From: Deltaproteobacteria bacterium
Lineage (GTDB): Bacteria; Desulfobacterota; Desulfarculia; Adiutricales; Adiutricaceae
Direction of reading: 5' to 3'
Length of the DNA stretch: 64,000 nucleotides
NCBI GenBank assembly: GCA_031279515.1
Contig: JAITII010000049.1
Span: forward strand, 1-64,000
Part shown: piece by piece, positions 2,763 to 51,586 of the stretch
Numbering within the stretch: position 1 is the first letter of the stretch
Layout of the letters: every line of letters starts with the position of its first letter
The notes under the pieces: generated by a model
Told to the model about the DNA's origin: nothing
The model's database searches: none
The model's input: the letters and a program-made list of their open reading frames with translations, nothing else
Position numbers and translations under genes: made by a program

Positions 2763-2768
2763 ATTACC

Positions 2769-4874: not shown

Positions 4875-4916
4875 AAATAGTTCTTTATCTGTGTGCCTAT
4901 AGACAGCAAAAATATT

Positions 4917-5756: not shown

Positions 5757-5767
5757 GATTGCCTCCT

Positions 5768-6811
5768 TTACGCCTGTTTTTGCATGTTTAATGTCGACAT
5801 CCTCAGGGCTACTGACCTGATGTCGATGTTCACCGGACACAAAACGACACAGCGCCCGCAGCCAGTGCAACCTCGGTCTCCGTTCTGCTTCATGGGGATG
5901 TACTTCAGTTTGTGCATAAAGCGTTGACGGACCCTTTCGGTTTTTGAGGGACGGGGATTGTGTCCTGTGCCGTGGACAGTAAAGAGCCAACTCATACAGG
6001 TATCCCAATTGCGCATACGCACCCCACCCTCGCTATTTTCCTCATCTTGAATGTCAAAACAATGGCAAGTGGGGCAGATGAAGGTGCAGACTCCGCAGTT
6101 TAGACAGTTCTCAGCTATAGACTGCCACTGGGGATCTTGAAAGAGGTTCAAAAGCCCGCGGTGGTCAATGGGGGAGTAATCATCGGGTATCCCTTGGGCC
6201 TTTATAGCCGCCTCTTCTTGGCTTTTTAGCTCGGAAGAGAGATCCGCCTCCTTTAAGTTGGCTTCAGCTAAGAGCTTGGCGCCTTCGTCGGTTATGGGTT
6301 TGAGGCCCAGACCCTTTTCACTTGGGAAAGCCAGGACATCTAAGCCCGTTGCGCCGTAGGGGCTTCCGCCCATAGCAACGCAGAAACACTGCGGGAAAGG
6401 ATCCTTGCAGGCCAGTCCCACCTTTATCACAGACTCATATTTTCCCTTCCAATAGGGGTCAGTGAAGCGGTCATTTTGGAAGACCTTGTTGGAAACCGAA
6501 AGTCCCTTGGCATCGCAAGGACGGATGCCAAAAACGACCGCAGATTTGGCCTTGTCACCTAAATCTTGGTAGACGTAGGGATGGGGTTTGGAATGATCCT
6601 TCTGGAAGGACATGAGCCATTCCGTCTGGGGGAAAAAGAGGGTCTTGGGTGAAATATGGGTATTGGTGAAGTTTAAAGTCACCTTATCAGGCGTTGTCTC
6701 TGTTATCTGACATTTGTCGCCTACACCCTGGGGTGAGAGAAGTACACGGCCTTTGGAGATGGACTGTAAAAAGTCCTTCAGGGCGTTTTCTTCCACTATA
6801 TATTCTGGCAT
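5768..6811 (-). CDS. flxB: FlxB-like 4Fe-4S dicluster protein
   Basis: A 347-residue iron-sulfur protein related to anaerobic sulfite reductase subunit A and hydrogenase-linked dicluster subunits. FGIRPCDAKGL near residue 100 is a family landmark. Two cluster-binding regions follow: CLNCGVCTFICPTCHC (about 237-252) and CTGCGRCVVLCPVN (about 316-329). It probably relays electrons between the flavin subunit FlxA and the HdrA core in the cytoplasm. The ATG at 6811 has AGGAAGG about 9 bases upstream. The gene lies 13 bp after flxC and 11 bp before flxA. Naming follows the flxABCD convention from sulfate reducers, where FlxD is MvhD-like; the B versus C labels are by best resemblance only. Confidence 0.85.
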   Translation of the reverse strand: MPEYIVEENALKDFLQSISKGRVLLSPQGVGDKCQITETTPDKVTLNFTNTHISPKTLFFPQTEWLMSFQKDHSKPHPYVYQDLGDKAKSAVVFGIRPCDAKGLSVSNKVFQNDRFTDPYWKGKYESVIKVGLACKDPFPQCFCVAMGGSPYGATGLDVLAFPSEKGLGLKPITDEGAKLLAEANLKEADLSSELKSQEEAAIKAQGIPDDYSPIDHRGLLNLFQDPQWQSIAENCLNCGVCTFICPTCHCFDIQDEENSEGGVRMRNWDTCMSWLFTVHGTGHNPRPSKTERVRQRFMHKLKYIPMKQNGDRGCTGCGRCVVLCPVNIDIRSVALRMSTLNMQKQA

Positions 6812-6824
6812 GGATGGGACCTTC

Positions 6825-7778
6825 CTATTTTATGAAGCTGGCTTCGTCGTCGGGCTGAAAAACGGTTAAGGGTGGTTTCTGCTCCCAAGAAAGCCCTGCC
6901 TCGTAGCCCCATTCGTCCATAACTGTTTCTTCAGTGATTCTATTGAATTCCCGAACCTTGATATTTACCGGACAGGCAGTCTCACAGGCTCCGCAAGATG
7001 TGCAGCGTCCTGCGCAGTGGAGTCCGCGCAAAAGATGGAAAGTCAAAGTGTCCATTGGATCGGTGGATTTTCCCAGCCATTGGGGCCTGGTCTCGTCTAC
7101 GAAGCAGACCGGGCAATAGCAGAGTGGGCATGCATTGCGGCAGGCATAGCAACGTAAGCAGTCCTTGATGAGATCCTTAAAATATTCCATACGCTCTTCT
7201 GGGCTTTTAGAGTGCAGCTCTTTAAGATCGGCAAAGTCATCCGCCTGGGCTCCAGGGACCTCGGGTCCCACGAGTTCGTCCGCTGTCTTGGGGGTGCGAT
7301 TGGCGCAGGTGCGGCAATTGCGGCGGAGTACTTCTTCCTTTTTGATCTCAGTGGAAAAATCTGCCCCTTTAAGGGTTATGGTGTCTAGGGTCTCGGAATA
7401 ATCGCGATAGGGCCTTTGTTCCTTGGCGGCTATGAGGTTGTTGTCCACCATACCGGTGCAAGGAACGCCAATTACATAGAGGTTATCCTTGTGGAATTGG
7501 TTTTCAGCAACTTGTCCCACGATACTTCTGGCATCGCAACCCTTGGCTACCACCGCCACCTTGCCAGGCCGGCCTGGGAGGTAGTTTGCAAGGTTGATTC
7601 TGGCGAAATTGCTCCAAATCAGCTGGTCGCAGTCCTCCGGGGTCCTGGCGAAAAAAGGAGCGGTAGAAAGTGGATAAGTGCCTTTCTTGTAACCAATGAC
7701 TACTTCAGCTTTGCCATCAGCAAGGGCCTTTTTCGCTGTTTCACGAATTTTTTGGGTGGTTTCTTCCAGGGAAGGCAT
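6825..7778 (-). CDS. flxC: FlxC-like 4Fe-4S protein with F420-hydrogenase-beta-like N-terminus
   Basis: A 317-residue iron-sulfur protein. The N-terminal half (KVAVVAKGCDARSI and NLYVIGVPCTGMVD) resembles the FrhB/FdhB family of electron-transfer proteins. RNCRTC lies near residue 153. The C-terminal half carries CLRCYACRNACPLCYCPVC and CTSCGACETACPVN, enough for two [4Fe-4S] clusters plus an extra cysteine group. It would be a wire between MvhD/HdrA and FlxAB. The start is ATG at 7778, one base after the mvhD stop, with GGAGGAGG inside the mvhD end as its ribosome-binding site, so translation is coupled. Confidence 0.85.
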   Translation of the reverse strand: MPSLEETTQKIRETAKKALADGKAEVVIGYKKGTYPLSTAPFFARTPEDCDQLIWSNFARINLANYLPGRPGKVAVVAKGCDARSIVGQVAENQFHKDNLYVIGVPCTGMVDNNLIAAKEQRPYRDYSETLDTITLKGADFSTEIKKEEVLRRNCRTCANRTPKTADELVGPEVPGAQADDFADLKELHSKSPEERMEYFKDLIKDCLRCYACRNACPLCYCPVCFVDETRPQWLGKSTDPMDTLTFHLLRGLHCAGRCTSCGACETACPVNIKVREFNRITEETVMDEWGYEAGLSWEQKPPLTVFQPDDEASFIK

Positions 7779-7779
7779 A

Positions 7780-8226
7780 TCAGGCCACCTCCTCCATTCC
7801 CAGTATCAAGGGGGCCTTGCGGAACTTTAGGTTGGGGCCGCAGGCTCTTACGTGCTCAACCACATCCGTTGCCATATGCTGAAATTTGGTGGCCTCAGCT
7901 GAGGAGATCCAGGAAAAGCGCAACCTGTCGGCTTCAAGACCAATGCTGTCTAACATGTAGTGCATGACTATGAACTTCCGACGGGCGTAATAGTTTCCAG
8001 CGATGTAATGGCAATCGCCTGGATGACATCCGCTAACCCACACCCCATCAGCACCCCTCTTAAAGGCCTCCAAAATAAACTTGGGGTTTAGCCTTCCTGT
8101 GCAAGGTAAGCGGACGACTCGGAAATTAGGGGGATATTCGAGTCGGCTTACTCCGGCCAGATCTGCAGCGCCGTAGGTACACCAGTTGCAGAAAAAGGCC
8201 ACTATTTTAGGTTCAAACTCAGACAT
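7780..8226 (-). CDS. mvhD: MvhD/FlxD-type [2Fe-2S] electron-transfer subunit
   Basis: A 148-residue protein of the methyl-viologen-reducing hydrogenase delta subunit family, which docks on HdrA and passes electrons to it. The family cysteines are present: CNWC (C13, C16), CTGR (C42) and CHPGDCHY (C67, C72). The start is ATG at 8226 with AAGAGGT about 5 bases upstream. The open frame can be read to 8313, but that extra part runs through the hairpin at 8291-8312 and matches nothing. No hydrogenase or formate dehydrogenase gene is adjacent, so in this operon the partner is presumably the FlxABC module rather than a hydrogenase. Confidence 0.92.
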   Translation of the reverse strand: MSEFEPKIVAFFCNWCTYGAADLAGVSRLEYPPNFRVVRLPCTGRLNPKFILEAFKRGADGVWVSGCHPGDCHYIAGNYYARRKFIVMHYMLDSIGLEADRLRFSWISSAEATKFQHMATDVVEHVRACGPNLKFRKAPLILGMEEVA

Positions 8227-8290
8227 GTTTACCTCTTGCGACCGGGATATATTGAAATTTGGCCGTTGTGATGGCTCATTTATATTCAAA

Positions 8291-8312
8291 TGGAGGCCCC
8301 GCGGGGCCTCCA
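8291..8312. repeat. Perfect intercistronic palindrome between hdrA and mvhD
   Basis: A 22-base perfect palindrome with 11-bp arms (TGGAGGCCCCG and its complement) lying between the hdrA stop and the mvhD start. There is no U-tract on the minus strand, so it is not a classical terminator. It is more likely an mRNA-stabilising or processing hairpin that separates expression of hdrA from the subunits downstream. Confidence 0.7.
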
Positions 8313-8340
8313 CAATTGGTAGTTAAAACTTAGGGGGGGA

Positions 8341-11300
8341 TTACAATGCAGAGGCGATTTGAGCGAAGAGCCCGGCGTTGGTGAAACCACGTAGGGAGGG
8401 GGCATCGGATCGGCAAGAAGATGCGCAGTTTCCACAGCCTTTGCACAAAGCCTCGTTGACAACGGCTTTGCCCTTGTCATCTAAAGAGATGGCATTGTAG
8501 GGGCAAACCGAGACGCAGACGCCGCAGCCAGAACACTTGTTCTGGTTTATTTCTGCCACAATGCCGCCCACAGTCATCTTGGGCTGGATGAGGACAGTCG
8601 CTGCCCGGGCTGCTGCAGCCTGGGCCTGGGCTATTACTTCCTCCATGGGCTTGGGATAGTGGCAAATACCGGCCATGAAGATGCCATCGGTGGCAAAATC
8701 AACGGGGCGCAGCTTCTGGTGGGCCTCAAAGAACCAGCCGTCCTGATCCAAAGGCACCTTGAACTGCATGGCCAGTTCGCATTCATTGCCGGAGACCATT
8801 GCAGCGGCCAAGACCAAAAAGTCTGGTGAGAGCACAAGGACATGGCCTGATACTGGGTCAAAGGCCTTGATCTTTAAGTGGCCGTCTTCTTCCAAGACCT
8901 CGGGTTTGGCATCCAAGTCGTAGCGCACAAAGATTACGCCCAAACTTCTGGCTTCTTTGTAAAGGTCCTCTTTCTGGGCATAGGTACGGATGTCGCGGTA
9001 TAGGACGAAGATCCTTGCCTCAGGCTTACGCTTTTTGAGTTCTATTGCCGCATGGACCGTGTGGGTGCAGCATACCTTGGAGCAGTAGAGCCTGTCGGGT
9101 TCACGGCTGCCAACACACTGGATGAAAACGTAATTCTTGGCGTCGTTTAAGCGGGGGTCATTGGCTTTTATGAGCTCATCCAATTCCAGTTGGGTAAGGA
9201 CATTGGGGTTTTTTCCGTAGAAATACTCGCTAGGCTTGTGTTCCAAGGCACCTGTTGCGATGATGGTGACCCCGTGTTTTATCTCCTCACCGGTGGACAG
9301 CGTGGAAACAAAGTTTCCTACATATCCGTCAGCCTTATTCACTTGTGAGTTCAAGATGAGGGTGATATTGGGGTCCTCTTCTACCTTTTTCTTTAAGGAT
9401 TCCAGGTATTCTGGAACGCTTTCACCCTTTGGAGTGGAGTGGATACGGTTTGCATTTCCTCCGGTTTTGTCGGATTTTTCCACGATGACCGACTTGAAGC
9501 CCTGGGAAGAAAGGGTTAGAGCCGTATTCAAGCCGGCTACGCCGCCACCAATCACGAGCGCTGTGGGGTCCACATCAATGATGTTTTCCTTTAAAGGAAC
9601 CAAGAGCGCGGCCTTGGCAACCGCCATCTCCGTCATGTCCATGGCCTTGCGGGTAGCCTCTGCCGGATGTCCGGCATGGACCCAGGAGTCATGGTTGCGG
9701 ATATTGGCCATCTCGTAGAGATACTTGTTGAGGCCAGCTGATGCTAAAGTCTCCTGGAACAAAGGTTCGTGGGTCCTGGGGGAACAGGCGGAAACCACGA
9801 TGCGGTTTAAGCGGTACTCCTTTATTAAGGATACCAACTTATCCTGGCTGTCCTGGGAGCAGGCAAAGATGGTGTTTGTGGCGTACTCAACAAAAGGCAA
9901 GGTTTTAGCGAATTCCACCACCTTGGGAACATCTACCACCGAGGCGATGTTGATGCCGCAATGGCAGATAAAAACGCCTATTCTCGGTGGCTCGCCAGAA
10001 ACGTCTACTGGAGCTGGCAGATGGATGACCTTAGTTAGAGTGCTTCTAGCGGAGGTGAGCTTAGTGGTTGACGCGGCAGCCGCTGCGGATGCCTCCATGA
10101 CCGAGGTGGGGATGTCCTTTGGGCCCGTAAACACACCGCACGCATAAAAGCCAGGGCGGGACAGAGCCACGGGGGCGAAAGTGGAGGTCTTGGCGAAGTT
10201 GTAGTGATCCGTTTCCAGCTCTAATTCATCCGAGAGTTTCTTGGTTTCACCCGTAATGACCAGACCGTGGGAGAGGACTGCTACATCGAAAAACTCTTGG
10301 TTGGAAACTCCACCATCGGTAATGTAGTGGATCATCACCCCGTTTTGAGGCTCCGGCTGGACGGTGTGTACGCGGCTGCGGACGAATTTGATACCAGCAG
10401 CCTTGGCTTTTTCGTAGTACCGCTCAAAGTCTTTTCCAAAGGTGCGGATGTCCATATAGAAAATCGTGACATCCAGATTCCCTCCGGCATGCTCTTTCGC
10501 GATGATGGCTTCCTTGATGGCATACATGCAGCAAACGGAGCTGCAGTAGCCATGGTCGGTCCTATTGATATCCCTGGAACCCACGCACTGGAGGAAGGCA
10601 ATTTTTTTGGGGTCTGAGTGATCCGAGGGACGGATAACATGGCCCATGGTGGGACCAGTCGCTCCCAGGTAGCGTTCGAATTCCAAAGCCGTTATGACAT
10701 CTTTGGCATCATAATAGCGATAAGTCTCGAAATCGGAAGGCTTGAAGGGGGCAAATCCTGGGGCCAATATGACCGAGCCCACTTTTAAACTGATATCTTC
10801 GGGTTTATCGTCATAATTGACGGCATCTGCCGGACAGACCTTCTTGCAGTTTCCGCACTTGCCCTTGGTCAAGTAGATGCACTCTTTGGCATCAATACCA
10901 TACTTTAAAGGAACGGCTTGAGCATACTGGACGTAAATAGCTTTGCGAGTATCCAGATTCTCGTTATACTCATTGTTGAGTTTTTTTGGACATTTTTTGG
11001 TGCATTCACCGCAGGCGATGCACTTACTCATATCTATATATCTTGGGTTTTTCCTGGCCTTGACAGTGAAGTTACCTTCCTCGCCCTCGATGGAAAGGAT
11101 GTCCGTTAGAGTCAATAATTCAATATTTATATGGCGTCCAACTTCTACTAATTTAGGCGAGATTATACACATTGAACAGTCATTGGTAGGAAATGTCTTG
11201 TCCAATTGAGACATTCTCCCGCCAATTGCCAGGGATTTTTCTACCAGGTAAACGTAATAGCCTGCATTGGCCAGATCTAGGGAGGCCTGCATTCCAGCGA

Positions 11301-33818: not shown

Positions 33819-35048
33819 TTGACTTCTAATATTGGGTGGTTGTGCTACGATTTAAAAGAGAAAGAGCGCATCCTTAAAATTCTCGCACTATTCCACGAAA
33901 AGAATACCCGAGATGAACTTGGGCTAGGTTCCATTACTAGCAGTTTTGCCGATCAGCTGTTTCCGGGCACGAGTACTATCCACACTCGTCTTCGCTATAT
34001 GCTCTTTGTGCCATGGATTTATAAAGAGTTGGAAAATGAAGCTGTTCACTTAAAAAAATTTGCAAAAAAGGCTGAAATTGAAGAACGCAATTTGATAGGG
34101 TCTCTTATGGATACCGACGACAGAGCCGGTATTTTTGGAAAAGCAGCAGGCACAGACATAAAACGTTTGCCGAGCAATGTGTATTGGTCAGCCCTTAGAA
34201 CCTGGGGAATATTCAGGTTAAATTGCTCGCAATGGATTTACCACGAAATCATAGACGATATTTATAGGGAAAGAGAAGTTTTAAATGCCCACAGAAAAGG
34301 ATCTAAAAATCAAAAAGATGATATAGATTTTGGATATCAAAAAGATACATGGCATCCAGCCTTGCCACCTATTCCAAAAAACTTTCCTGCTAAAGCGGAG
34401 TTTGCATTAACTGAAGAAGAATCCAATTTCATTTTGGATCGCATTAATGATTCATGCAAAGGTAGCCTTCTTTCATATTTAGCTAATTTGCCTGAGACTG
34501 CTGATTCAGAAACTCCATGGGGACATCCATATTATAGTGAGTTTTCAGATGAGCATAAAGAAATCTTAGCTCATGCTCGGATTTTCTCAGATGTAATGGA
34601 AGGAGCGGCTATATCCTATAACTTCCAGCTTGCCAAATTACGAAACAATAAAGAGCTAGCAAAAGAACACCAAAACTCATTTAAAAAATGGAATAAAGAT
34701 GTTCGAATGAAAACTATCCATGAGATTAATGATTGGTCTTTGGAGCGTTTCTGGCAAATAGCGAGTAATTCCAAACACAGAGTTACTACTTTTACGACTC
34801 ATTTTGTAAATGATTGGATAAGTTTCGTAAAAGATCTAACAAAAGATCTACTTTCAGATCCTGCAGCTCTTGAGTTGGTAAAAAGAAGAGAAATATCACT
34901 CAAAAAAATCAACTCAAGATTTACTAACCAAAAAGCTCTTGAACAGTGGAGCGGATATTCAGGCCTAGGAACATACATTTTCAGGTGGAATAACGTAAAG
35001 GTACTATTAAAAGACTTATTTCAGGGCTTAAATAAAGGAACAATGTAG
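33819..35048 (+). CDS. DUF6361 family protein, putative defence module component
   Basis: A 409-residue protein of the DUF6361 family: SNIGWLCYDLKEKERILKIL at the N-terminus, then NTRDELGLGSITSSFADQLF and PGTSTIHTRLRYMLFVPWIY, which are its hallmark. The function of the family is not known to me; such genes sit beside PLD-like and helicase genes, as here. No catalytic motif is obvious. The start is TTG with AGAGGT about 9 bases upstream; the product then begins like other members. Its stop is immediately followed by the ATG of the PLD-like gene (0 bp). The gene is A/T-rich compared with pgk and pncC, consistent with transfer. Confidence 0.82.
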   Translation: MTSNIGWLCYDLKEKERILKILALFHEKNTRDELGLGSITSSFADQLFPGTSTIHTRLRYMLFVPWIYKELENEAVHLKKFAKKAEIEERNLIGSLMDTDDRAGIFGKAAGTDIKRLPSNVYWSALRTWGIFRLNCSQWIYHEIIDDIYREREVLNAHRKGSKNQKDDIDFGYQKDTWHPALPPIPKNFPAKAEFALTEEESNFILDRINDSCKGSLLSYLANLPETADSETPWGHPYYSEFSDEHKEILAHARIFSDVMEGAAISYNFQLAKLRNNKELAKEHQNSFKKWNKDVRMKTIHEINDWSLERFWQIASNSKHRVTTFTTHFVNDWISFVKDLTKDLLSDPAALELVKRREISLKKINSRFTNQKALEQWSGYSGLGTYIFRWNNVKVLLKDLFQGLNKGTM

Positions 35049-36911
35049 ATGTTAAATCCAAATAAGCCAAACCAATATTCTGAAGCTCTGATACCTCCCT
35101 TCGGTATGGAGTTAGAAGTAGCAGTAGCTACAACCTATTCCATAAACCCAGCTTTTGTGCTGGAAGCCTGCGTTCACTTGTCATCACTATCTGCAAATGA
35201 TAAATATGATATTGACCCTATTGTCATACTTACTGGATTAAGCATCCTTGAAAACAAAATTACCATCTACACTGAACATGGAGAGTCTCAAGTTCCACCT
35301 GTCGCAAAGACAAATCCCCTACTTGCCAACTTGGATAGAATGGTTATTAGTGTGAAAAGAAAAGATGGCGGCATTTTTCATCCAAAAGTGTGGGCGCTAA
35401 AATACGTGGACCCAGATCAAAACGAAAGTGCTTTATATCGCCTATTGATCCTTACAAGAAATATGACATACGATAGGTCATGGGACACTATACTAAAACT
35501 TGATGGGAGAATAAATAGTAAGAAGCAAAATTCAAATAATCCTTTAAATGCTTTTTTTAAAATGCTTCCAAATTTAGCTGAATATTCCATGGAACAGTCT
35601 AGAAAAGAACAAACCTTAAATTTAGCCGACGAGCTTAATTATGTTATTTGGGAACTGCCAGAAAACTATGAGGAAATAAAGTTTTATCTTCCATGGATGC
35701 AAAAATATAAATGGGAGCCTCCTCAATCCAATCATATGCTTGTTATTTCACCCTTTTGTTCAAATTCTGCCTTAGATAAATTAACAAAAAACAACCAAAA
35801 TACAAAAGTCTTAATATCTCGCCCTGAAACATTGATGTCTTTAAACAAAAGTACCCTAAAAAAGTTTAATAAATGTTATCACTTAAATGAATATGCGGAA
35901 ATTGAGGATGGCGAAGATTGCAATGACTCAGAGCAACTTATCGCACATGGCTTGCACACAAAGATGTATTTGTTTGAGACTCAAGTCCGTTCAGAATATA
36001 CCCACTTAGTAATGGGTTCCTCTAACGCAACAACCGCCGGTCTTTCCTATTCTAAAAATGCTGATGAGAACAACATTGAAATATTAGTAGAGCTCACAGG
36101 TAGAAAAGATAAAATAGGAGGAATTAAGGATTTACTTGGAGCAAATGGAATAGGAAATTATCTCCTTCAATTTACAAAATCAGACGATCTTGTTATTGAC
36201 AACGAAGGCTTAGAAGCCGAGAAAATCCTTAAAGAAGCCAAACATCTTTTAGTAGATACAGAACTATCCATTAAATGCAAACCTGGTTCTAGAGAAGGAT
36301 TTTGGGAATTGATATTGCTGGGAAAAATACCGCATCTTGATGGTATTGCAAGTATTTCTGCATGGCCAATAACAGTAAATAATTGTAATGCTGTAATTCT
36401 AAAGGATAGTGAAAAATCAGGTAAAACTAGTCTCGGAGAGTTCTCCTTAGCAAATATAACTGGATACATAGCTTTCGAACTTAAAATCAAATCTTACGAC
36501 GATATTTTAGGAGATAATTACGATAATTCAATAAAATTTTCACGCAATCTTAGCATTACTGGTATTCCAAGTAAGCGCAAATCCGCTATTTTTAATGATA
36601 TAATTAATGATAAACAAAAATTATTTAATCATATTGTCCTATTTCTTGGATTTGATGGGGTAGTATCCAAACTACTTTCAGGAAATAGCTCAAGTGAGTC
36701 TTATAATCGTAGTCACCGATATTCTGAGAGCGATGATTACCCACTGCTTGAAACAATGATTCGCGTGCTTACTAAATCGCCACATAAAATTGCGGCAATC
36801 TCCTCCTCTATTAAAGATCTTGTGCCAACAATTGAAAATTCCATCGTCCCTGAGGATTATCTAAATTTATTATCAATTTTTGAAGAAGCCATAAGTGAGA
36901 TTAATGACTAA
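35049..36911 (+). CDS. Phospholipase D-like phosphodiesterase/nuclease, putative defence effector
   Basis: A 620-residue protein with two HxK half-sites of the PLD superfamily. Site 1: FHPKVWALKY (H111, K113) followed by LLILTRNMTYDRSWD. Site 2: GLHTKMYLFE (H303, K305) followed by VMGSSNATTAGLSY. PLD-type defence proteins usually cut DNA or act as helicase-linked nucleases. The 300 residues after site 2 are unassigned. Start follows the DUF6361 stop with no gap; the helicase ATG overlaps its end by 8 bp. All three are thus one translational unit. The Asp of a classical HKD motif is replaced by less canonical residues in both sites, so activity needs care. Confidence 0.8.
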   Translation: MLNPNKPNQYSEALIPPFGMELEVAVATTYSINPAFVLEACVHLSSLSANDKYDIDPIVILTGLSILENKITIYTEHGESQVPPVAKTNPLLANLDRMVISVKRKDGGIFHPKVWALKYVDPDQNESALYRLLILTRNMTYDRSWDTILKLDGRINSKKQNSNNPLNAFFKMLPNLAEYSMEQSRKEQTLNLADELNYVIWELPENYEEIKFYLPWMQKYKWEPPQSNHMLVISPFCSNSALDKLTKNNQNTKVLISRPETLMSLNKSTLKKFNKCYHLNEYAEIEDGEDCNDSEQLIAHGLHTKMYLFETQVRSEYTHLVMGSSNATTAGLSYSKNADENNIEILVELTGRKDKIGGIKDLLGANGIGNYLLQFTKSDDLVIDNEGLEAEKILKEAKHLLVDTELSIKCKPGSREGFWELILLGKIPHLDGIASISAWPITVNNCNAVILKDSEKSGKTSLGEFSLANITGYIAFELKIKSYDDILGDNYDNSIKFSRNLSITGIPSKRKSAIFNDIINDKQKLFNHIVLFLGFDGVVSKLLSGNSSSESYNRSHRYSESDDYPLLETMIRVLTKSPHKIAAISSSIKDLVPTIENSIVPEDYLNLLSIFEEAISEIND

Positions 36912-39900
36912 AGACCATTATTCAGCTGAAAAAGATTTAAAAGAACTCAAAGACTTCCAGAGGAAGACGGTTGAGTATGTTTTTGATAGGTTATACGGAG
37001 CTAATCCCACCAACCGCTTTTTAGTTGCAGATGAGGTTGGACTTGGAAAAACATTTGTTGCCAAAGGCGTTATCGCCAAATCTTTGGAATACATGCAGGA
37101 CAGAGTAAAGAGATATGATGTGGTTTACATCTGCTCTAATGAGGCAATAGCTAAACAAAACGTAGTCAAACTCAATATATTAGGAAGCAAAGGTTTTTCC
37201 ATATCGACTCGTCTTACCTACCTTATCAGAGATGTAAAAAATCTTACTAACACTGACAACTTAGGCAATTTTATAAGTCTAACTCCTGGTACAGCATTCG
37301 ACCTCCTATCTGGCCACAGTAGCGGTCGTTCTGATGAAAGAGCAATTATCTACCGAGTATTACACAATTTACCCATTTCTGATACCAATGAACTTGAACA
37401 AATACGAAAAGGACTACATAACATATTGCAGGTTTCAGTGGAAAAAGAAAACTGGGACGAACAGACTATAAAATTAAAACAAGACGATCTCGATGAAGAT
37501 CTTTCAAAAGCCTATCAAAAGAGAATTATAAAGAATCAACAATTATTCGAGCTACTAAAAGAAACTTGTGATCGATTTTCACGATATAGAAGCGAAAATA
37601 ATATTTCACTTGAAAATAAGGAATTACGCAATAATCTCATTGGACAACTTAGAACCGAACTGGCTAAAACGAACCTTACAGCTTTAGAACCAGATTTGAT
37701 TATTCTTGATGAGTTTCAACGATTTAAGCATGTTTTGAGTTGTGATGACTATACGTCCATTGTCGCCAATGAGCTCTTTAAGTACAAGAACGTTAAAATA
37801 CTTTTACTTTCTGCTACTCCGTACAAAATGTACACCCTAGATGGGGAGAGCGATTTAGAAGACCACTATGCCGATTTTATGGCAACATTGCAGTTTCTAT
37901 TTGATGACCCTAATAAGCTAGAAGAGATAAAAGATCTTTTGTCCAAATATCGGCTATCACTTCATGCACTAAACAACGCCACTTCAATTGACTTAAATAT
38001 CAAAAATGCCCTTGAAAAAGCTCTTTTGCAAGTCATGTGCCGCACTGAAAGGGTTGTTTCTACAATCGACCGTAATTCGATGCTTGAAGTAAAAGAAAGA
38101 ACGGCCCCTCTTGTGCCCAAAGATCTTGTACATGCCGCTACAGTTCAAAAAGTCGCATCTTTTTTTGAAGCAGGAGATATTATTGAATACTGGAAATCAA
38201 TGCCCTACCTTTTAAATTTCTTGAAAGACTATGATCTTAGAAAAAAGATTGATTCTCAATTGGAATCACCCACAGATGAGCTTATATCTGAGCTTTCTAC
38301 CGCTAAAGAAGAAATATTACGTAAGAAAAAATTAGATAATTATGAGGAAATTGATGGAGCGAATCCTAGAATGCGCTTACTCTTTAAAGACACCTTGGAT
38401 AATGGCATGTGGCAGCTTTTATGGTTACCACCTTCTATGCCATATATGAAACCAAATGGAGTATACAAGGATAAAAAAAATTTAACCAAGATATTGGTCT
38501 TTTCTTCCTGGAATGCTGTTCCCAACGCAATTGCCACCATTTGTTCCTATGAAGCGGAAAGAAGAATGATAGGCGAGACCCAATTATCTCGCAAACAGCT
38601 TCATTCTAAAACATCTCAATTATTAAATTTTAGTATATCTACAGATACTAAACTTCCCACTGGAATGTCCCTTTTGTCTTGGATGTGGCCGTCTAATACT
38701 TTAGCCACCAAAATAGATCCGCTCATTATCGCCCTTAAGCATGGTAAAGAACTTCTTGATATCATAGATATGAAGACAACTATAAAATTTATATGTCAGA
38801 AATTATTGGATAAATTACCTGAAGGCAATACTGGAAGACGTACTGATGACAGATGGTATTGGGCGGCACCCTTTCTTCTTGATGCGAAATATAGCACAAG
38901 AACCGGTAGGAAGATCCCTACAAATTTTATTCAATTTTTTGAAACTATCTCCGATCTTACCGAAAGTACACATATTAAGAAACACCTAGATTTACTGCTA
39001 GAAATAATCAAAGGTACCATAACTTTAGGCCCCAAACCTAAGGATTTAGCTGACCGGCTTTGCGATCTTTCTTTGGCTTCACCTGGGGTGTGTGCCTTGC
39101 GGACTCTAAAGAGACTTGCTAAAGATATAGACCCGTATGATGAAGATCTTTTTATTTCTGCCACTAAAATAGCATGCGGATTTCGCTCTTTTTTTAATTC
39201 ACCCGAAACTATTCACATGCTTCGAAAATCTAAAGATAATTTATTTTTAAACCTTGTAATTCAATATAGCATAGATGGTAATTTTCAAGCCATGCTAGAT
39301 GAATACGTACATAATGTTTGCGGTCATTCAAATATCCACAATACTTCCGCAGAAGAGCTATTTGAATTAATTTCTGAAGACATCTACCAAGTCTTGACAT
39401 TACGAACCTCACGCATTCAAATAGATGAGATAAAAATTTCACGCGACAATTTCAGTATTGATAATTTTAATGCCCAATGCCACTTTGCTCTTCGCTTCAG
39501 TAATATTAAAAATGAAGATAGCCAAACTATAGCTCGCGCTAAATTAGTTCAACTAGCTTTCAATTCACCTTTTCGTCCATTTGTACTTGCCTCAACCTCG
39601 ATAGGCCAAGAAGGATTAGATTTTCATGTTTGGTGTCATGCAGTGATGCACTGGAACCTTCCTTCTAACCCCATTGATCTTGAGCAACGCGAAGGCAGGA
39701 TACAGCGCTTTAAAGGGCATGCCATCAGGAAAAATGTAGCCGAAAAATATGGTCTTTCGGCTTTTCCAACCCCTTATGTTGGAGGAGACCCCTGGGAAAT
39801 TCTCTTTGATATCGCAGCGCAGGATAAAGAATCTGGGCAATCGGATCTTATTCCTTACTGGATCTTCGAAGAAGGCTCTGCCCGAGTGGAACGGCGCGTA

Positions 39901-40071
39901 CCCTTAATTCCTTACAGCAGGGAACTCGACCAATTTAAGCGCCTTAAGCGCTCCTTAACTTTTTACCGGATGGTTTTTGGCCAACCTCGTCAGGAGGATC
40001 TTTTGGCAAGCTTAAGCCATATGACAAAGGATATCTCGTCTATCCTCATTTCTTTGACTCCCCCCGATTAA
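36904..40071 (+). CDS. Large SNF2/SF2 helicase of the DUF6361 module
   Basis: A 1055-residue ATPase. N-lobe: FQRKTVEYVFDRLYG (Q-motif region), Walker A ADEVGLGKTF (K49), Walker B ILDEFQRF (D269-E270) and LLSATPYKM. C-lobe: LASTSIGQEGLDFH (about 898) and motif VI QREGRIQRFKGH (about 927), with intact arginines. Between the lobes is a 500-residue insertion without recognisable domains. This intact set implies ATP-driven translocation. Start is ATG at 36904, overlapping the PLD stop; a GTG at 36895 is also open. I know of no characterised system with exactly this DUF6361-PLD-helicase set; it resembles defence helicase-nuclease pairs such as DISARM in logic only. Confidence 0.85.
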   Translation: MTKDHYSAEKDLKELKDFQRKTVEYVFDRLYGANPTNRFLVADEVGLGKTFVAKGVIAKSLEYMQDRVKRYDVVYICSNEAIAKQNVVKLNILGSKGFSISTRLTYLIRDVKNLTNTDNLGNFISLTPGTAFDLLSGHSSGRSDERAIIYRVLHNLPISDTNELEQIRKGLHNILQVSVEKENWDEQTIKLKQDDLDEDLSKAYQKRIIKNQQLFELLKETCDRFSRYRSENNISLENKELRNNLIGQLRTELAKTNLTALEPDLIILDEFQRFKHVLSCDDYTSIVANELFKYKNVKILLLSATPYKMYTLDGESDLEDHYADFMATLQFLFDDPNKLEEIKDLLSKYRLSLHALNNATSIDLNIKNALEKALLQVMCRTERVVSTIDRNSMLEVKERTAPLVPKDLVHAATVQKVASFFEAGDIIEYWKSMPYLLNFLKDYDLRKKIDSQLESPTDELISELSTAKEEILRKKKLDNYEEIDGANPRMRLLFKDTLDNGMWQLLWLPPSMPYMKPNGVYKDKKNLTKILVFSSWNAVPNAIATICSYEAERRMIGETQLSRKQLHSKTSQLLNFSISTDTKLPTGMSLLSWMWPSNTLATKIDPLIIALKHGKELLDIIDMKTTIKFICQKLLDKLPEGNTGRRTDDRWYWAAPFLLDAKYSTRTGRKIPTNFIQFFETISDLTESTHIKKHLDLLLEIIKGTITLGPKPKDLADRLCDLSLASPGVCALRTLKRLAKDIDPYDEDLFISATKIACGFRSFFNSPETIHMLRKSKDNLFLNLVIQYSIDGNFQAMLDEYVHNVCGHSNIHNTSAEELFELISEDIYQVLTLRTSRIQIDEIKISRDNFSIDNFNAQCHFALRFSNIKNEDSQTIARAKLVQLAFNSPFRPFVLASTSIGQEGLDFHVWCHAVMHWNLPSNPIDLEQREGRIQRFKGHAIRKNVAEKYGLSAFPTPYVGGDPWEILFDIAAQDKESGQSDLIPYWIFEEGSARVERRVPLIPYSRELDQFKRLKRSLTFYRMVFGQPRQEDLLASLSHMTKDISSILISLTPPD

Positions 40072-40669: not shown

Positions 40670-41689
40670 ATGAAAGCTGGAATCATAGGTTTTCCTGGTT
40701 CAGGTAGAGATACCGTCTTCCGTGCCCTCACCGCACTCCCCCGGGTGGAGGGTTTAAACGAGCAAAGGCTGGGGGAGGCTTTGGTGGAAGATGCACGCTT
40801 GGATTATCTATCCGGCCTTTTTAACCCCAAAAAACATACCCCGGCAAAACTGGAGCTCTTTAGCGCGAGGCCTTTGGGCCAGAACAAAAATGAGTCCATT
40901 AGGCTTTCTCTGGAAAAGGTGCGGGATTGCGACGTGCTTTTGCTGGTAGTGCGTAATTTTCCTGACCCCTCCCAGAAAACGCAAGCCCCCTTAGAAGAGG
41001 CCGAGGAGATATTGAATGAATTTTTAGTAACTGACTATATTTCTGTGGAAAAGCGTCTGGAGCGCCTGGGGGAAGAAAGAAAGAGGGGCAAAAAAGCTGA
41101 CCCCATTGAAGCCGAACTATTAGACCTGGCCAAGGGGCTGCTGGAAGCCAATACCCCCTTGAGGGGAGAGCCTAAGATTACTTGTGCCCCCTTGCTCAAG
41201 GGCTTTGGGTTCCTGTCGGCTAAACCTTATTTAGTGTTGGTTAATAATCCAGATGATGGAGACGATAGCTTTAAGCTTTCCGCCCCCCTGCCCCAACTAA
41301 GCTTACGGGGCAACCTGGAAGCTGAGATAGCCGCCTTGGAGCCGGAGGAAGCCCCAGAGTTTCTGGCGGACTACGGCTTAAAAGAACCCGGCAGGGCTAG
41401 AGTCATAAAGACGCTCTATGAACTCATGGAACTTATTAGCTTTTTTACAGTGGGCGAAGACGAGTGCCGGGCCTGGACCCTGACTCGGGGTGAAGACGCT
41501 TTAACTGCAGCTGGGAAAATTCATTCAGACATCAAAAAGGGCTTCATTCGCGCAGAGGTGGTGGCTTTCGATGATTTTAAGGCCACAGGCGGCTTTGCCG
41601 AGGCCAAGAAAAAGGGGGTCTTTCGCCTGGAGGGGAAGACCTACAAGGTAATTGATGGCGATATCATCCATTTCCGTTTCAATGTTTAA
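40670..41689 (+). CDS. YchF-like DUF933 protein with degenerate P-loop
   Basis: A 339-residue relative of the universally conserved ATPase YchF (usually about 363 residues). The C-terminal half (LYELMELISFFTVGEDECRA, then IHSDIKKGFIRAEVVAF and EGKTYKVIDGDIIHFRFNV) is the intact YchF/TGS-DUF933 domain. The N-terminal Walker A is altered: GFPGSGRDT (G7-G12, R13, D14) where YchF has GLPNVGKST, so the catalytic Lys and Ser/Thr are gone. NNPDDGD stands where YchF has the NxxE specificity motif. Nucleotide hydrolysis is doubtful. A true YchF may exist elsewhere. YchF binds ribosomes, so an accessory translation role is possible. Isolated gene. Confidence 0.78.
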   Translation: MKAGIIGFPGSGRDTVFRALTALPRVEGLNEQRLGEALVEDARLDYLSGLFNPKKHTPAKLELFSARPLGQNKNESIRLSLEKVRDCDVLLLVVRNFPDPSQKTQAPLEEAEEILNEFLVTDYISVEKRLERLGEERKRGKKADPIEAELLDLAKGLLEANTPLRGEPKITCAPLLKGFGFLSAKPYLVLVNNPDDGDDSFKLSAPLPQLSLRGNLEAEIAALEPEEAPEFLADYGLKEPGRARVIKTLYELMELISFFTVGEDECRAWTLTRGEDALTAAGKIHSDIKKGFIRAEVVAFDDFKATGGFAEAKKKGVFRLEGKTYKVIDGDIIHFRFNV

Positions 41690-45820: not shown

Positions 45821-48800
45821 ATGAACTTCAAAGAAATAATAGCTAAACACCTGAGTGAGTCAATGCCCCAAGAGAACAAGGGGGAAGAACCCTTTGTAAA
45901 TCTCATGATCTCTTTTTTAAAGACCGATCCTCAGTATGGGACAATAATCAAGGATGCTTGGGAATGGATAGACTTCCCCTATAAGAAGGACTTAGCTGAC
46001 TCAGAAGTTCCAGGGATAGACATAGTAGTTGAAACAAACGAGGGCTCATTTTGGGCGGTTAGGTGTAAGAATTCCCAGTGGGAAACTTCCTTGAGCATGA
46101 AAAGCTTAGAACACTTTCTTTCCACTTCCAACAAAAAATTTACAGGTCTAGGCGGCGAAAAGAAAAAATTTGAGCTAAGGCTTATTATCTCCAGCACTGA
46201 CAATTGGAGCAAAGAAACTGAAGATGCAATTAGGGGTCTGGACCCTCCTTGCAAATGGATTACCCTAGTTCAGCTGGAAACAGCTCCAGTTGACTGGAGG
46301 AAACTGGATAGCGGGCTCTACGGTCCAATGGCCCGAGCATATAGAAAAAAGCCAAAGACGCACCACGAGGAAGCGGTGGAAGCCTTCCATGAGTACTTTA
46401 AAACAAAAGACAGGGGAAAACTAATTTTACCCCGCTGGACTGGCAAAACCTATACTGCTCTTAAGATTGCTGAAAATGAGATCCACGGTAACGGCCTGGT
46501 AGTCTACTTTGCCCCCTCCATAGCCTCAGTTGGGCAGGCCTTAAAGGAATGGAGAACTGAATCAAGAGCACCACTTTTCTCCATTTGCGTCTACTCCGAT
46601 AATGAGATATCACAAGAATTGACCAAAAGTCAGAAAGATGATTCCTCCTATGTGGACGCTCAATATCTTGGCATTCCTGCCTCTACTTCACCTGAGCTAA
46701 TAGCCTATCAATTAAAATTGGCTAAAAGAAACAACACCGGCCTGCTCTGCGCAATTTTTTCGACTTATGATTCCTTACCCATAGTTGCCAAGGCCATTTC
46801 CGATACTGGAAGCAAAATAGACCTTATTGTCTGTGACGAGGCCCATAGGACTACCGGCGTAATGAAAGCTAAAGATGGAAATAATTTCATTCTGGTCCAT
46901 GACCAGAAATTTCTTCCAGCTAAAAAGCGCCTCTATATGACAGCCACCCCCATAATTTATGGAGAGGAAGTCAGAACAAGGAGAAAAGAGGTTTCAGCTG
47001 TTATCTATTCCATGGACGATCCTGAAATCTACGGGGCTGAAGTTTACCGCATGGACTTTAGTAAGGCTGTTAAACAAAATCTTATTTCTGATTATAAGGT
47101 TTTGCTCTTAATGTTGAAACCAACATCTGTTTTGTCAAAGACTCTGAAAAAAATGAATGAAGATGGCCAAAATAAATTTGAGGAAAACGATCTGGTTAAA
47201 TCCATTGGCTCCATTTTTGCCTTATGTAAGATGGTGTATACGAAAAGTGGTATGTTAAATGATCTTGACCCTGTGGCTATGGAAAGGGCTATGGCTTTTT
47301 GCGAAACCATCAATAATTCTAAAACAGTAGCAGAGATTTTTAAAAAGTTCAAGGACAATGTTTATGATAAATTGGATCCATCTGAAAGGAAAAAATTAGT
47401 AGCTGTTTCAGCTAACCATGTTGATGGTACAATGCCAGCCGCCATTCGGAATGAAAAAATGTCTTGGTTGAATAATGTTCCAATGAAACCGACAAGTTCT
47501 CATATCCTAACTAATGAGCGCTGCCTATCGGAAGTTTGTAACGTCCCAAACTTGGATGCTGTCATATACATGTCACAAACAAACTCTGATATAGAACTAA
47601 TTCAGTCTGTAGGGCTTGTTATGGGCAAGGCTATGGGCAAAAAATATGGCTACATAATAATTCCTGTTGTTGTTCCCACAGATGTTGTCTCTGCAGAAAC
47701 CTTTTGTAATAGTGGTACTTTTCAGGTAGTGTGGGATGTCTTAAACGCCTTAAAGGCTCACGATGACAGTTTTAACGCTAAGATTAACCAAATACGTTTC
47801 AATGAAACTATTCCAACTGACGGCGGATGGCTTTTAATCGACTCTCCTTGTGCTGAAGCTATACAGTTTGTAAGAAATGCAAAATCAAGGCGTCTTTTTA
47901 TACCATCGGTAGATGAAATAAAAGATTACCCAGATTCTATCTATGCTCAGCTGGGAAAAAAAATGGGCAGCCCCCGTCACATGATACCCTGGGCTAAAAG
48001 TGTCGGTAAATTAGTCAAGGATTATATTACTAAATTTCAGTATCTAGTACAAAATCCCGGAAAAGCGCATGATGAGTTTCAAAATTTTTTAAATTTTCTT
48101 AGGGAAAATATTAGTCCAACACTCGATCAAGATGATGCTATCTCCATGTTAGCCCAACATATGGTAATCCATCCTGTATATGAAGCAGTATTTAGCCATT
48201 ATTCTTATTTAAAGAGTAACCCACTATTGCAATCCCTTCAAAGAGTGGCAGATATACTAGAGAAAAATACCCCAGATAGATACAATAAAAATGTTCTCAT
48301 AAAGAGTTCCACAATAGATAAGTTTGTAATTGGGATAGATAATGTTAGAGGCAGGCAGAAAATTATCGAGGAATTATACAATAAGTTTTTTAAAGTGCTC
48401 TTTAAAGATATGGTAGATAAACGCGGCATTGCGTCTACACCAGTAGAGTTAGCAGACTTTATCATTAACTCTGTTTCACAAATTTTACTAAGAGAATTTG
48501 AAAGAAAAATTTCCAGAAAGAATATCCATATCTTCGATCCTTTCACTGGGACAGGCACCTATATAACAAGACTATTGCGATCTGGACTTATAGATAAATC
48601 CATTGAAAGAAAGTATAAAAATGAAATTCATGCCAATGAGATACTTTTGCTTCCTTACTATATAGCTTCAATAAATACTGAAAACACATACCTGTCACTT
48701 ACTAAAAAAGCTAATATATATATACCTTTTGACGGAATTTCCCTAACTGATACCTTTCACGAAATTTCCTTAACTGATACCTCCCAATTGTATGGAATAG

Positions 48801-50719
48801 CTAGTACCATTAAGTTTAGTAATCCGTATTATCCGGTTTGGAAAAATCCTGAAGAAATTACATGGGAGAATAGCTCGCCAATATTCGTAATTTTAGGAAC
48901 TCCTCCTTTCAATATAGGAGAAAAAACTGATAATGATATAGCTCAAAATGTCTCGCATCCTCCACTAGAAAAACGCATCGCAGAAACATATGCATCTACA
49001 TATTCGGATCAAGACACAAAAAATCCTTTATTAGATCCCTATATCAAAGCCTTCAGATGGGCCACTGAAAAAATTGATGAAAATAATCCTGCTGCCGGAA
49101 TTATAGCATTTATAACTAGCGCTGATTGGATAGATGACAATGCTTTGGAGGGCATGCGGAGAAGTTTTGCTAAAGAATTTACTTCAATTTATGTTTTAAA
49201 TTTGCGCGGCAACACCGAAATGACTTCAGATATAAGTCTAAAAAAAGAAGGGAAAAATATTTTTGGCTTATTTTCTAAACGACATATTGCTATTACAATT
49301 TTAGTAAAGAATCCACTAAGAGCAGGTTCATGTCACATTTTTTATTCTGCTGTACCATATTATATGACTAAAAATGATAAACTTGCTTTTCTAAAAAAAT
49401 CTCATGATATCTACAATGATGACTTGCTGTGGAAAGAGATTATACCTAATGAATCAGCTGAATGGAAAATTCAAACAAATTCTCCATGGAATCATTTTAT
49501 ATCAATAGCCGATAAGAAAGAAACTGATACTTTTTTTACCAATGATTATTTTGCTGGCTTAAAAACAGCAGGCGATAGTTTGTTTTATAATTTTTCGAAA
49601 GAAAGCTTACAGGAAAATATTGCAGAGTCTATATCGTTATCTAATGATCAAATGAAGCAATATATAGTAGCAAAAGAAGAAAATCCATCTTTAAAAGTAG
49701 ATAAATTTATTACTAAACCTTCAAAGTTACTAGTAAGTTTTCGCCAAAGAAGATCTGATCTTAAGGATGGTAAATTTTATTCCCTTGATAAAAACTATTT
49801 TTTTAAAGCATTATATAGACCTTTTCAAAAACAAATTTGCTATTTAAACCCTGAACTCAATAAAAGTAAATATTTATCCAATCATATTTTTCCTAAAAAT
49901 CAAGCTCAAAATTTAGTCATTTGTGTTAGCGGACCTAGAAGCACTGGATCATTTTCAACAATAATGACAGATGTAATTCCATCTTTTGATTTGTTGGGGA
50001 ACACTCAATGTTTCCCATTATATTACTTTGAAAAGTTTGAAAACAAGGATATTTATCGGACTAAATCTGCTAAGGTGCATGTGGCATATAAAACCCATAA
50101 GTGTATTACTGATTATATTTTGAACCAGTGTAAATCGAAATACGGTTTGGTGTATCCTCGTATAAATAAGATTGATATATTCTATTATATTTATGGTCTT
50201 TTTCATTCTCCTGAATATACAAGCACTTTTGCTTCAGACTTAACTAAAACGCTACCACAAATTCCCTTAGTTCTAAAAGTCAATGATTTTCGAGAATTTG
50301 TAAAAGCAGGCAAGGCACTTTCCAAACTCCATTTGCAGTATGAGAGTGTACCTCCTTACTCTAAAGTTAAGATTATTTGGGAGAAAAAGACCAATTTAGA
50401 AGTTACGAAAATGTCTTTCGGACATAAACATGGCTCAGTAGATGATAAATCTATCATCATCTACAATTATGACATCAAAATTACTGATATTCCTTTAGAT
50501 GCGTACAACTATGTTATAAACGACAAATCTCCCATTGAATGGGCGATGGAAGGATATCAAGAAACTATAGACAAGAGGACACGCATTACAAACGATCCTA
50601 ACCATTATGCTTTGGAGATTGAAAATCGGCGCTATATTTTGGAGCTAATTTTACGTCTCATTACAGTAAGCCTAGAGACCCAAGATATAGTTAAAAATCT
50701 CCCAAAATTAGACTTCTAA
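45821..50719 (+). CDS. Type ISP-like restriction-modification protein with substituted catalytic motifs
   Basis: A 1632-residue single-chain protein laid out like LlaBIII: nuclease, helicase-like ATPase, N6-adenine methyltransferase and target recognition. Nuclease: PGIDIVV (D67) then WAVRCK, so Arg81 stands for the Gln/Glu of the (E/Q)xK motif. ATPase: LPRWTGKT (203-210) for the usual ACGTGKT; DEAH at 339 and TATP are kept; motif VI QSVGLVMGKA (595-604) lacks both arginines of QxxGRxxR. Methyltransferase: motif I DPFTGTGT (906) is normal, but motif IV is LGTPPF (T1027) for NPP(Y/F). The frame is unbroken, so this is either a recent point-mutated relic or a repurposed protein. A/T-rich, no clear RBS at the ATG. 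Confidence 0.85.
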   Translation: MNFKEIIAKHLSESMPQENKGEEPFVNLMISFLKTDPQYGTIIKDAWEWIDFPYKKDLADSEVPGIDIVVETNEGSFWAVRCKNSQWETSLSMKSLEHFLSTSNKKFTGLGGEKKKFELRLIISSTDNWSKETEDAIRGLDPPCKWITLVQLETAPVDWRKLDSGLYGPMARAYRKKPKTHHEEAVEAFHEYFKTKDRGKLILPRWTGKTYTALKIAENEIHGNGLVVYFAPSIASVGQALKEWRTESRAPLFSICVYSDNEISQELTKSQKDDSSYVDAQYLGIPASTSPELIAYQLKLAKRNNTGLLCAIFSTYDSLPIVAKAISDTGSKIDLIVCDEAHRTTGVMKAKDGNNFILVHDQKFLPAKKRLYMTATPIIYGEEVRTRRKEVSAVIYSMDDPEIYGAEVYRMDFSKAVKQNLISDYKVLLLMLKPTSVLSKTLKKMNEDGQNKFEENDLVKSIGSIFALCKMVYTKSGMLNDLDPVAMERAMAFCETINNSKTVAEIFKKFKDNVYDKLDPSERKKLVAVSANHVDGTMPAAIRNEKMSWLNNVPMKPTSSHILTNERCLSEVCNVPNLDAVIYMSQTNSDIELIQSVGLVMGKAMGKKYGYIIIPVVVPTDVVSAETFCNSGTFQVVWDVLNALKAHDDSFNAKINQIRFNETIPTDGGWLLIDSPCAEAIQFVRNAKSRRLFIPSVDEIKDYPDSIYAQLGKKMGSPRHMIPWAKSVGKLVKDYITKFQYLVQNPGKAHDEFQNFLNFLRENISPTLDQDDAISMLAQHMVIHPVYEAVFSHYSYLKSNPLLQSLQRVADILEKNTPDRYNKNVLIKSSTIDKFVIGIDNVRGRQKIIEELYNKFFKVLFKDMVDKRGIASTPVELADFIINSVSQILLREFERKISRKNIHIFDPFTGTGTYITRLLRSGLIDKSIERKYKNEIHANEILLLPYYIASINTENTYLSLTKKANIYIPFDGISLTDTFHEISLTDTSQLYGIASTIKFSNPYYPVWKNPEEITWENSSPIFVILGTPPFNIGEKTDNDIAQNVSHPPLEKRIAETYASTYSDQDTKNPLLDPYIKAFRWATEKIDENNPAAGIIAFITSADWIDDNALEGMRRSFAKEFTSIYVLNLRGNTEMTSDISLKKEGKNIFGLFSKRHIAITILVKNPLRAGSCHIFYSAVPYYMTKNDKLAFLKKSHDIYNDDLLWKEIIPNESAEWKIQTNSPWNHFISIADKKETDTFFTNDYFAGLKTAGDSLFYNFSKESLQENIAESISLSNDQMKQYIVAKEENPSLKVDKFITKPSKLLVSFRQRRSDLKDGKFYSLDKNYFFKALYRPFQKQICYLNPELNKSKYLSNHIFPKNQAQNLVICVSGPRSTGSFSTIMTDVIPSFDLLGNTQCFPLYYFEKFENKDIYRTKSAKVHVAYKTHKCITDYILNQCKSKYGLVYPRINKIDIFYYIYGLFHSPEYTSTFASDLTKTLPQIPLVLKVNDFREFVKAGKALSKLHLQYESVPPYSKVKIIWEKKTNLEVTKMSFGHKHGSVDDKSIIIYNYDIKITDIPLDAYNYVINDKSPIEWAMEGYQETIDKRTRITNDPNHYALEIENRRYILELILRLITVSLETQDIVKNLPKLDF
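48737..48781 (+). repeat. 27-bp tandem duplication inside the type ISP gene
   Basis: The segment ISLTDT(F)HE is followed immediately by a second ISLTDT, a 9-residue period in the DNA as well, with a few base differences. It lies between motifs I and IV of the methyltransferase and keeps the frame. Confidence 0.6.
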
Positions 50720-51445: not shown

Positions 51446-51586
51446 TTCGGACAAGCTAAGGCCGCCTGAGCCTTGCGACCTCTTACAAATACCTCGAATT
51501 GACGCTTTTAGCTCGTAGCTTAATGGATTTTACTACTAACAAAAAAGAACAAAAGGGATAAGGGCCACTGGTGGCCATTTTTTTTA
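51446..51586 (+). ncRNA. Candidate small RNA or attenuated leader before the DUF711 gene
   Basis: Between the promoter-like sequence at 51411 and the terminator at 51562-51586 lies about 140 bases with no start codon plus RBS. It either makes a small RNA or a terminated leader controlling the DUF711 gene. It does not match 6S, SRP, tmRNA or RNase P features that I can recognise. Confidence 0.3.
51562..51586 (+). terminator. Rho-independent terminator just upstream of the DUF711 start
   Basis: Stem GGCCAC/GTGGCC with loop TG followed by ATTTTTTTT. It ends only 27 bases before the ATG at 51614, so it stops a transcript from upstream or acts as an attenuator. Confidence 0.75.

What the first reader, a model, noticed from the sequence alone, without database searches (positions are those of the whole stretch)
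45821..50719. Type ISP restriction-modification protein with all three catalytic modules altered but the frame intact
By eye alignment with the LlaBIII-type architecture: nuclease (E/Q)xK reads RxK (R81-K83); Walker A keeps TGKT but loses the flanking ACG (PRW); motif VI loses both Arg (L599, G602); methyltransferase motif IV NPPY reads TPPF (T1027). DEAH, TATP and methyltransferase motif I remain. Four separate hallmark losses in a 1632-codon gene without a single frameshift or stop suggests either recent relaxed selection by point mutation or repurposing, for example as a decoy or DNA-binding protein.
Basis: partly seen in the sequence, partly recalled or inferred. Interest (0 to 1): 0.72.

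Follow-up and report, generated by a model that had tools for sequence, protein, structure and literature searches.

The report
Catalytically dead, frame-intact restriction enzyme paralogue
This gene makes a full-length relative of a phage-fighting restriction enzyme that has lost its cutting, motor and DNA-marking residues; the genome shows it is not simply rotting like an ordinary dead gene, so the cell probably still uses the inert protein for something.

Summary
Window 45821-50719 (+) is a 1632-codon type ISP homologue (five-domain architecture, closest solved relative LlaBIII) with hallmark residues lost in all three catalytic modules and no stop or frameshift. These residues are not normal for its subfamily: about 50 relatives from the same bacterial family, including two paralogues in the same genome, keep them. 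Two other open, full-length copies are dead in the same sense: C82 in the same genome (different lesions) and one in another genus.

The damage is not confined to catalysis: 46 of 254 near-invariant columns are gone, hallmark columns no more often than others. Free drift to that point should leave about 22 stops (minimum 9 in 300 simulations); there are none. A true ISP pseudogene in the same genome, equally diverged at DNA level, has deletions, frameshifts and stops. Branch omega is about 1, against 0.12-0.32 for the intact sister, yet residual constraint persists. "Recent relaxed selection" is therefore unlikely; a retained non-catalytic protein is favoured. Its role is inferred: perhaps a static DNA-bound collision partner for the active ISP paralogues, as published for ATPase-dead LlaGI, or a decoy. 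No domain stands out as protected, which limits confidence.

The parts
45821..50719 (+). type ISP-derived gene, 1632 codons, open frame
45920..46312 (+). Mrr-type nuclease domain (Mrr_cat_2, residues 34-164)
46061..46069 (+). R81-C82-K83 in place of the family's Q-C-K; catalytic D67 (46019-46021) retained
46427..46450 (+). Walker A, LPRWTGKT in place of LPCGTGKT (C205R, G206W)
46835..46846 (+). helicase motif II, DEAH, retained
46940..46951 (+). helicase motif III, TATP, retained
47513..47545 (+). motif V, G572V and D574N (SEGVD reads SEVCN)
47603..47626 (+). motif VI, R599L and R602G (QSVGRVMR reads QSVGLVMG)
47990..48289 (+). ISP coupler domain (residues 724-823)
48536..48559 (+). methyltransferase motif I DPFTGTGT, retained (also in L002; DPFAGTGT in L044)
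48899..48910 (+). methyltransferase motif IV TPPF in place of NPPY (N1027T = LlaGI N1018; T also in L002 and L044)
49217..49219 (+). E1133, equivalent of LlaGI R1119 in recognition loop III (R in 32 of 36 intact copies)
   Evidence: numbering after PMC4872093
49547..50647 (+). C-terminal specificity domain (Type_ISP_C)

Best explanation
A retained pseudoenzyme. The gene arose by duplication of a working type ISP restriction-modification enzyme within this lineage. Shown here: residues needed for nuclease, ATP-driven translocation and adenine methylation are lost; the whole protein evolves at about the neutral missense rate; yet truncation is selected against, and residual constraint on conserved columns and on the kind of replacement remains. 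Inferred: the full-length product folds and acts by binding rather than catalysis. The most concrete version is a static, site-bound partner. An active ISP paralogue in the same cell starts from an unmethylated site on foreign DNA, translocates, and is triggered to nick when it runs into the immobile, DNA-bound protein. Such a partner has no motor, nuclease or methylation of its own, so it would be harmless on host DNA, where the active enzyme's start sites are methylated.
For: Family alignment: about 50 relatives keep the residues that this gene lost.

No stops, where neutral simulation expects 22.5 (minimum 9 of 300 runs); the same holds for the second dead paralogue L002 (expected 19.5, minimum 8) and the distant L044 (expected 8.6, minimum 2).

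In-genome control: the ISP remnant on contig C120 is 77% identical in DNA to intact L003 over its matching pieces (the window gene is 76%) but is reduced to fragments with deletions and stops.

Codon model: omega on this branch is 0.99-1.33. Fixing it at 0.2 costs 2dlnL 71-84; fixing it at 1 costs 0.7-1.2. Partitioned by conservation: conserved columns 0.50-0.52, variable 1.55-1.62; intact L003 0.03-0.08 and 0.18-0.35; L002 conserved 0.37-0.47, below 1 (2dlnL 5.6-21).

Replacements at conserved columns are more conservative than single-step neutral change (0 of 2000 runs for the window gene at the 0.8 threshold, 1 of 2000 at 0.93).

Active partners are probably present: L003 and L005 have intact motifs as far as assembled. 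Published: ATPase-dead or nuclease-dead LlaGI bound at its site raises nicking by a colliding LlaBIII (PMC4666363); ATPase-dead LlaBIII hit by a translocating enzyme allows nicks but no double-strand break (PMC7049714).
Against: omega of the two dead paralogues against each other is uniform along the gene (0.47-0.64 per 160 codons): no domain, DNA recognition included, stands out as protected in the window gene. A recognition-loop arginine is E1133 here. No ribosome-binding site is visible upstream, though the intact copies L003 and L005 lack one too. Some intact paralogue pairs in another genus also show fairly high omega (0.35-0.39), so part of the fast missense change may be normal for this family. 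The conserved-column omega of the window gene is below 1 with only 2dlnL 2.9-3.0. The active copies are cut by contig ends, so their catalytic halves beyond residue 463 were not seen. No expression data.
Confidence: 0.5

Rival explanations
1. Pseudogene decaying under relaxed selection whose frame is still open by luck or because decay is young.
For: Lesions are spread over all modules at the same rate as other invariant columns (8/33 hallmark against 65/323 other, p=0.65); omega is near 1; AT-rich composition (GC 0.36).
Against: Zero stops against about 22 expected; the same for two further dead copies. True ISP decay in the same genome (C120) and in related genomes brings stops, frameshifts and deletions, sometimes with hardly any missense loss (L094: frame broken near residue 325-334 but 2 of 211 invariant columns lost). 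Conserved columns still change more slowly and more conservatively.
Confidence: 0.2
2. Decoy for phage anti-restriction proteins: the dead copies look like the active enzymes to phage inhibitors and soak them up, and diverge fast in an arms race.
For: Rapid whole-protein divergence with omega above 1 (1.55-1.62) at variable columns of the window gene, two divergent dead copies beside motif-intact ones, and retention of overall architecture.
Against: omega above 1 is not significant (2dlnL 2.7-3.8); no inhibitor is known for these enzymes here; no phage-borne relative of this protein was found in the one viral scan run.
Confidence: 0.12
3. Still an active enzyme of altered chemistry, for example an SAM-binding or DNA-binding protein with a different reaction.
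For: Methyltransferase motif I, motif X 'TP', DEAH, TATP, D67 and the GKT of Walker A are kept; motif I is kept in all three dead copies and all three carry the same N to T change in motif IV.
Against: Motif VI arginines, motif V glycine and the Walker A glycine are gone, and the second copy lost a different set (K83R, DEVH, TAIP, VRRIMS, STLPY). A shared new activity would be expected to conserve a common set.
Confidence: 0.08
4. Silent cassette that donates sequence, for example specificity, to the active copies by recombination.
For: Several copies in one genome, with the assembly breaking inside two or three of them.
Against: No long shared tracts: the longest identical run between the window gene and L003 is 24 nt, with L002 19 nt, against 64 nt between the intact L003 and L005. 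A silent donor needs no open frame.
Confidence: 0.05
5. Assembly, binning or consensus artefact.
For: The genome is a draft of 148 contigs with 3.3% estimated contamination.
Against: The three copies of this genome form one clade with 100/100 support; the window's DUF711 gene is closest to a same-genus genome, 74% at DNA level, with omega 0.06. Errors would add stops and frameshifts, not remove them.
Confidence: 0.03

Closest known systems
LlaBIII and LlaGI (type ISP restriction-modification enzymes, PDB 4xqk, 5ffj)
   Same: Same five-domain single-chain architecture, aligned over nearly the whole length; catalytic D78 equivalent and methyltransferase motif I kept.
   Different: Nuclease QxK, Walker A glycine, motif V, motif VI and methyltransferase motif IV residues are lost; no activity expected.
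Intact ISP paralogues of the same genome (L003, L005, and the 3' end L004)
   Same: Sister copies in one 100/100 clade with the window gene; 61-64% protein identity to it (L003, L004).
   Different: L003 and L005 keep all motifs seen and evolve slowly (L003 terminal branch 0.086 against 0.6; omega 0.12-0.32 against about 1).
METTL14-type pseudo-methyltransferases (general knowledge, not tested here)
   Same: A methyltransferase-fold protein that lost its motif IV chemistry but is kept for binding.
   Different: Eukaryotic RNA system; here a whole restriction enzyme with three dead modules.
Walker A-dead LlaGI as static roadblock (PMC4666363)
   Same: A motor-dead ISP enzyme bound at its site that triggers nicking by a colliding active enzyme: the behaviour proposed here.
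   Different: That was a laboratory mutant of an otherwise intact enzyme; DNA binding by the window protein is untested.

Membership tests
type ISP restriction-modification enzymes | single polypeptide with Mrr-type nuclease, SF2 helicase-like ATPase, coupler, methyltransferase and specificity domain | tested here: met
   Pfam domains in order; LlaBIII alignment over residues 23-1631
type ISP restriction-modification enzymes | nuclease active site D ... (Q/E)xK | tested here: not met
   D67 kept, Q81R
type ISP restriction-modification enzymes | SF2 motifs I, II, III, V, VI | tested here: not met
   II and III kept; I (G206W), V (G572V, D574N) and VI (R599L, R602G) lost
type ISP restriction-modification enzymes | gamma-class adenine methyltransferase motifs: X (TP), I (DPFTGTG), IV (NPPY) | tested here: not met
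   X and I kept, IV reads TPPF; N in 34 of 34 intact copies
type ISP restriction-modification enzymes | site-specific methylation and ATP-dependent cleavage | not testable with these tools
   needs methylome data and biochemistry
neutrally decaying pseudogene | no selection against stops, frameshifts or changes at conserved columns | tested here: not met
pseudoenzyme retained by selection | catalytic residues lost while frame and residual structural constraint persist | tested here: met
   (residual constraint moderate: 2dlnL about 3 for the window gene alone, 5.6-21 for L002)
pseudoenzyme retained by selection | demonstrated non-catalytic role | not testable with these tools
   no expression or binding data

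The most novel reading that the evidence does not exclude
A natural 'hammer and anvil' restriction system: inert, DNA-bound ISP paralogues act as fixed collision partners (or decoys) for the active ISP enzymes of the same cell, and dead but selected ISP copies have arisen at least twice in this bacterial family.
Probability: 0.18. Interest if true: 0.75.

Novelty: new variant of a known kind. Interest (0 to 1): 0.52.

Why it matters
Inactive restriction genes are usually written off as pseudogenes. Here intact, dead-but-open and truly decayed copies of one restriction enzyme sit in a single genome, which gives an internal yardstick for telling a retained pseudoenzyme from a dying gene. If the inert copies work with or protect the active ones, counting only catalytically complete genes would misjudge a cell's restriction repertoire.

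Tried and rejected
Residues normal for the subfamily: rejected by alignment. Selective removal of catalysis only: rejected, since other invariant columns are lost at the same rate. Gene conversion with active copies: no tracts. Shared mobile flanks: only short upstream matches of 27 and 66 nt between flanks. Phage-borne relatives: none in the one viral scan run. Genome-wide loss of constraint: rejected, since DUF711 has omega 0.06 against the same-genus genome, with dS near saturation, and the intact paralogue L003 has 0.12-0.32. A specially protected specificity domain: fewer conserved columns are lost there in L044 and somewhat fewer in the others, but pairwise omega of the window gene and L002 is uniform, so it is not claimed. 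Organism name: the single genome-contig scan found only one distant hit, so the genome stays anonymous. Structure prediction was not run: the protein exceeds 1200 aa, and a model driven by intact homologues would not tell the hypotheses apart.

Full report
What is there. The window encodes, at 45821-50719 on the + strand, a 1632-residue protein with the complete domain order of a type ISP restriction-modification enzyme: Mrr-type nuclease, ResIII helicase-like ATPase, ISP coupler, methyltransferase and Type_ISP_C specificity domain. It aligns with LlaBIII (4xqk) over nearly its whole length at E 9.7e-238, and PADLOC names it a restriction enzyme-methyltransferase with 1463 bits. There is one addition: motif V is lost as well.

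Relatives. ISP genes occur in 29 of 37 genomes of the window's bacterial family, usually in several copies and often cut by contig ends. The window's own genome holds the window copy (C4), a second full-length copy (C82, L002), the start of an intact copy (C144, L003, 463 codons), the start of another (C112, L005), an ISP 3' end (C130, L004) and a decayed remnant (C120). In the alignment nearly all relatives keep every hallmark. Three full-length open copies do not: the window copy, C82, and L044 from another genus. C82 has its own lesions (K83R, DEVH, TAIP, G598R and R602S, STLPY). In the full-length tree the two own-genome dead copies are sisters and L044 lies elsewhere, so there are at least two origins. 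With L003 included, the three own copies form a 100/100 clade; whether the two dead ones share a dead ancestor is unresolved.

How far decayed. Of 254 near-invariant columns the window copy lost 46, C82 40 and L044 68; intact full-length members of the family mostly lost 0-4. Hallmark columns were not hit more than the others (8/33 against 65/323, p 0.65). So the loss is general and not a targeted removal of catalysis. N1027, the first residue of NPPY, is T in all three dead copies. That may be descent for two of them and chance for the third, and I do not build on it.

Why it is not an ordinary pseudogene. Under neutral drift to 46 lost columns, simulation gives 22.5 in-frame stops on average and never fewer than 9 in 300 runs; the corresponding figures are 19.5 and 8 for C82, and 8.6 and 2 for L044. 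All three have none, and no frameshift. The C120 remnant is the internal control: at 77% DNA identity to L003 over its matching pieces (window gene 76%) it survives only as fragments with deletions and the stops CD*AH, KL**SA and NI*QPP. Other decayed copies in the family also carry stops. L094, from another family of the phylum, has a broken frame but almost no missense loss.

Selection. On the N-terminal 455 codons, omega of the window branch is 0.99-1.33 depending on topology and base frequencies, far from 0.2 (2dlnL 71-84) and not distinguishable from 1. C82 is at 0.56-0.83 and intact L003 at 0.12-0.32. Splitting columns by conservation gives the window branch 0.50-0.52 (conserved) and 1.55-1.62 (variable), C82 0.37-0.47 and 0.76-0.96, and L003 0.03-0.08 and 0.18-0.35. 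Replacements at conserved columns are more conservative than neutral single-step change, though less so than in intact members. The two dead copies compared with each other have omega 0.53, uniform along the gene, whereas the intact pair L010-L034 at similar synonymous distance has 0.15. A caution: intact paralogues of genome G027 reach 0.35-0.39, so fast missense change is partly a habit of this family; the conserved-column result is the cleaner signal. Genome-wide constraint is normal where checked: DUF711 has omega 0.06 against the same-genus genome, with dS near saturation.

Mechanism. Shown: catalytic residues lost, frame and some structure still selected. Inferred: a binding role. Published work gives a concrete precedent. 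LlaGI with a dead Walker A or nuclease, sitting at its site, raises nicking by a colliding LlaBIII (PMC4666363). ATPase-dead LlaBIII hit by a translocating enzyme yields nicks but no double-strand break (PMC7049714). An inert paralogue beside active ones could thus be a fixed anvil; a decoy for anti-restriction proteins is the main alternative. Against both, no domain, including DNA recognition, is specially protected in the window copy, and a recognition-loop arginine is glutamate here.

Position. By descent this is a type ISP protein; by function it fails three defining features, so it should not be filed as an active member. I found no paper describing dead but retained ISP paralogues in the open library searched, which does not prove that none exists.

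Noticed in passing
window 40670-41689 (+): The genome's only YchF-type protein (PF06071 search) has a P-loop reading GFPGSGRDT in place of the usual GxxxxGKST. All seven family members whose N-terminus was read have SGRD or SGRE, while relatives from sister families have GKS or GKT: an apparent family-wide loss of the P-loop lysine in a near-universal ATPase.
   Followed up: partly
window 33819-40071 (+): Three-gene set matching PADLOC ZacA, ZacB and ZacC over their full lengths; the helicase motifs of the third gene look intact (VGLGKT, SATP, REGRIQR).
   Followed up: partly
L108 (G000:C120), about 1309-1837: Decayed ISP remnant in the same genome, with start codon, internal deletions and stops; used as control.
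   Followed up: yes
L044 / L077 (G011:C181, 2699-7456): A third dead but open ISP copy with GC 0.71 and GC3 0.91, far above the other ISP copies of that genome (0.47-0.50 for their loci).
   Followed up: partly
L001, L002, L003, L005 upstream of the start codon: The last 13-14 bases before the start codon (AAAAGATTTCCCC-like) are shared by all four own-genome copies, dead ones included, with no Shine-Dalgarno sequence.
   Followed up: no
window 51563-51584 (+): A terminator-like hairpin with T-run ends about 30 bases before the DUF711 start codon; possible attenuator or the end of the upstream unit.
   Followed up: no
L078 (G000:C82), 1494-8378: The second dead ISP copy lies beside a run of nitrogenase-like component genes and a cysteine synthase-like gene (recognised by eye from the translations, not searched).
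   Followed up: no
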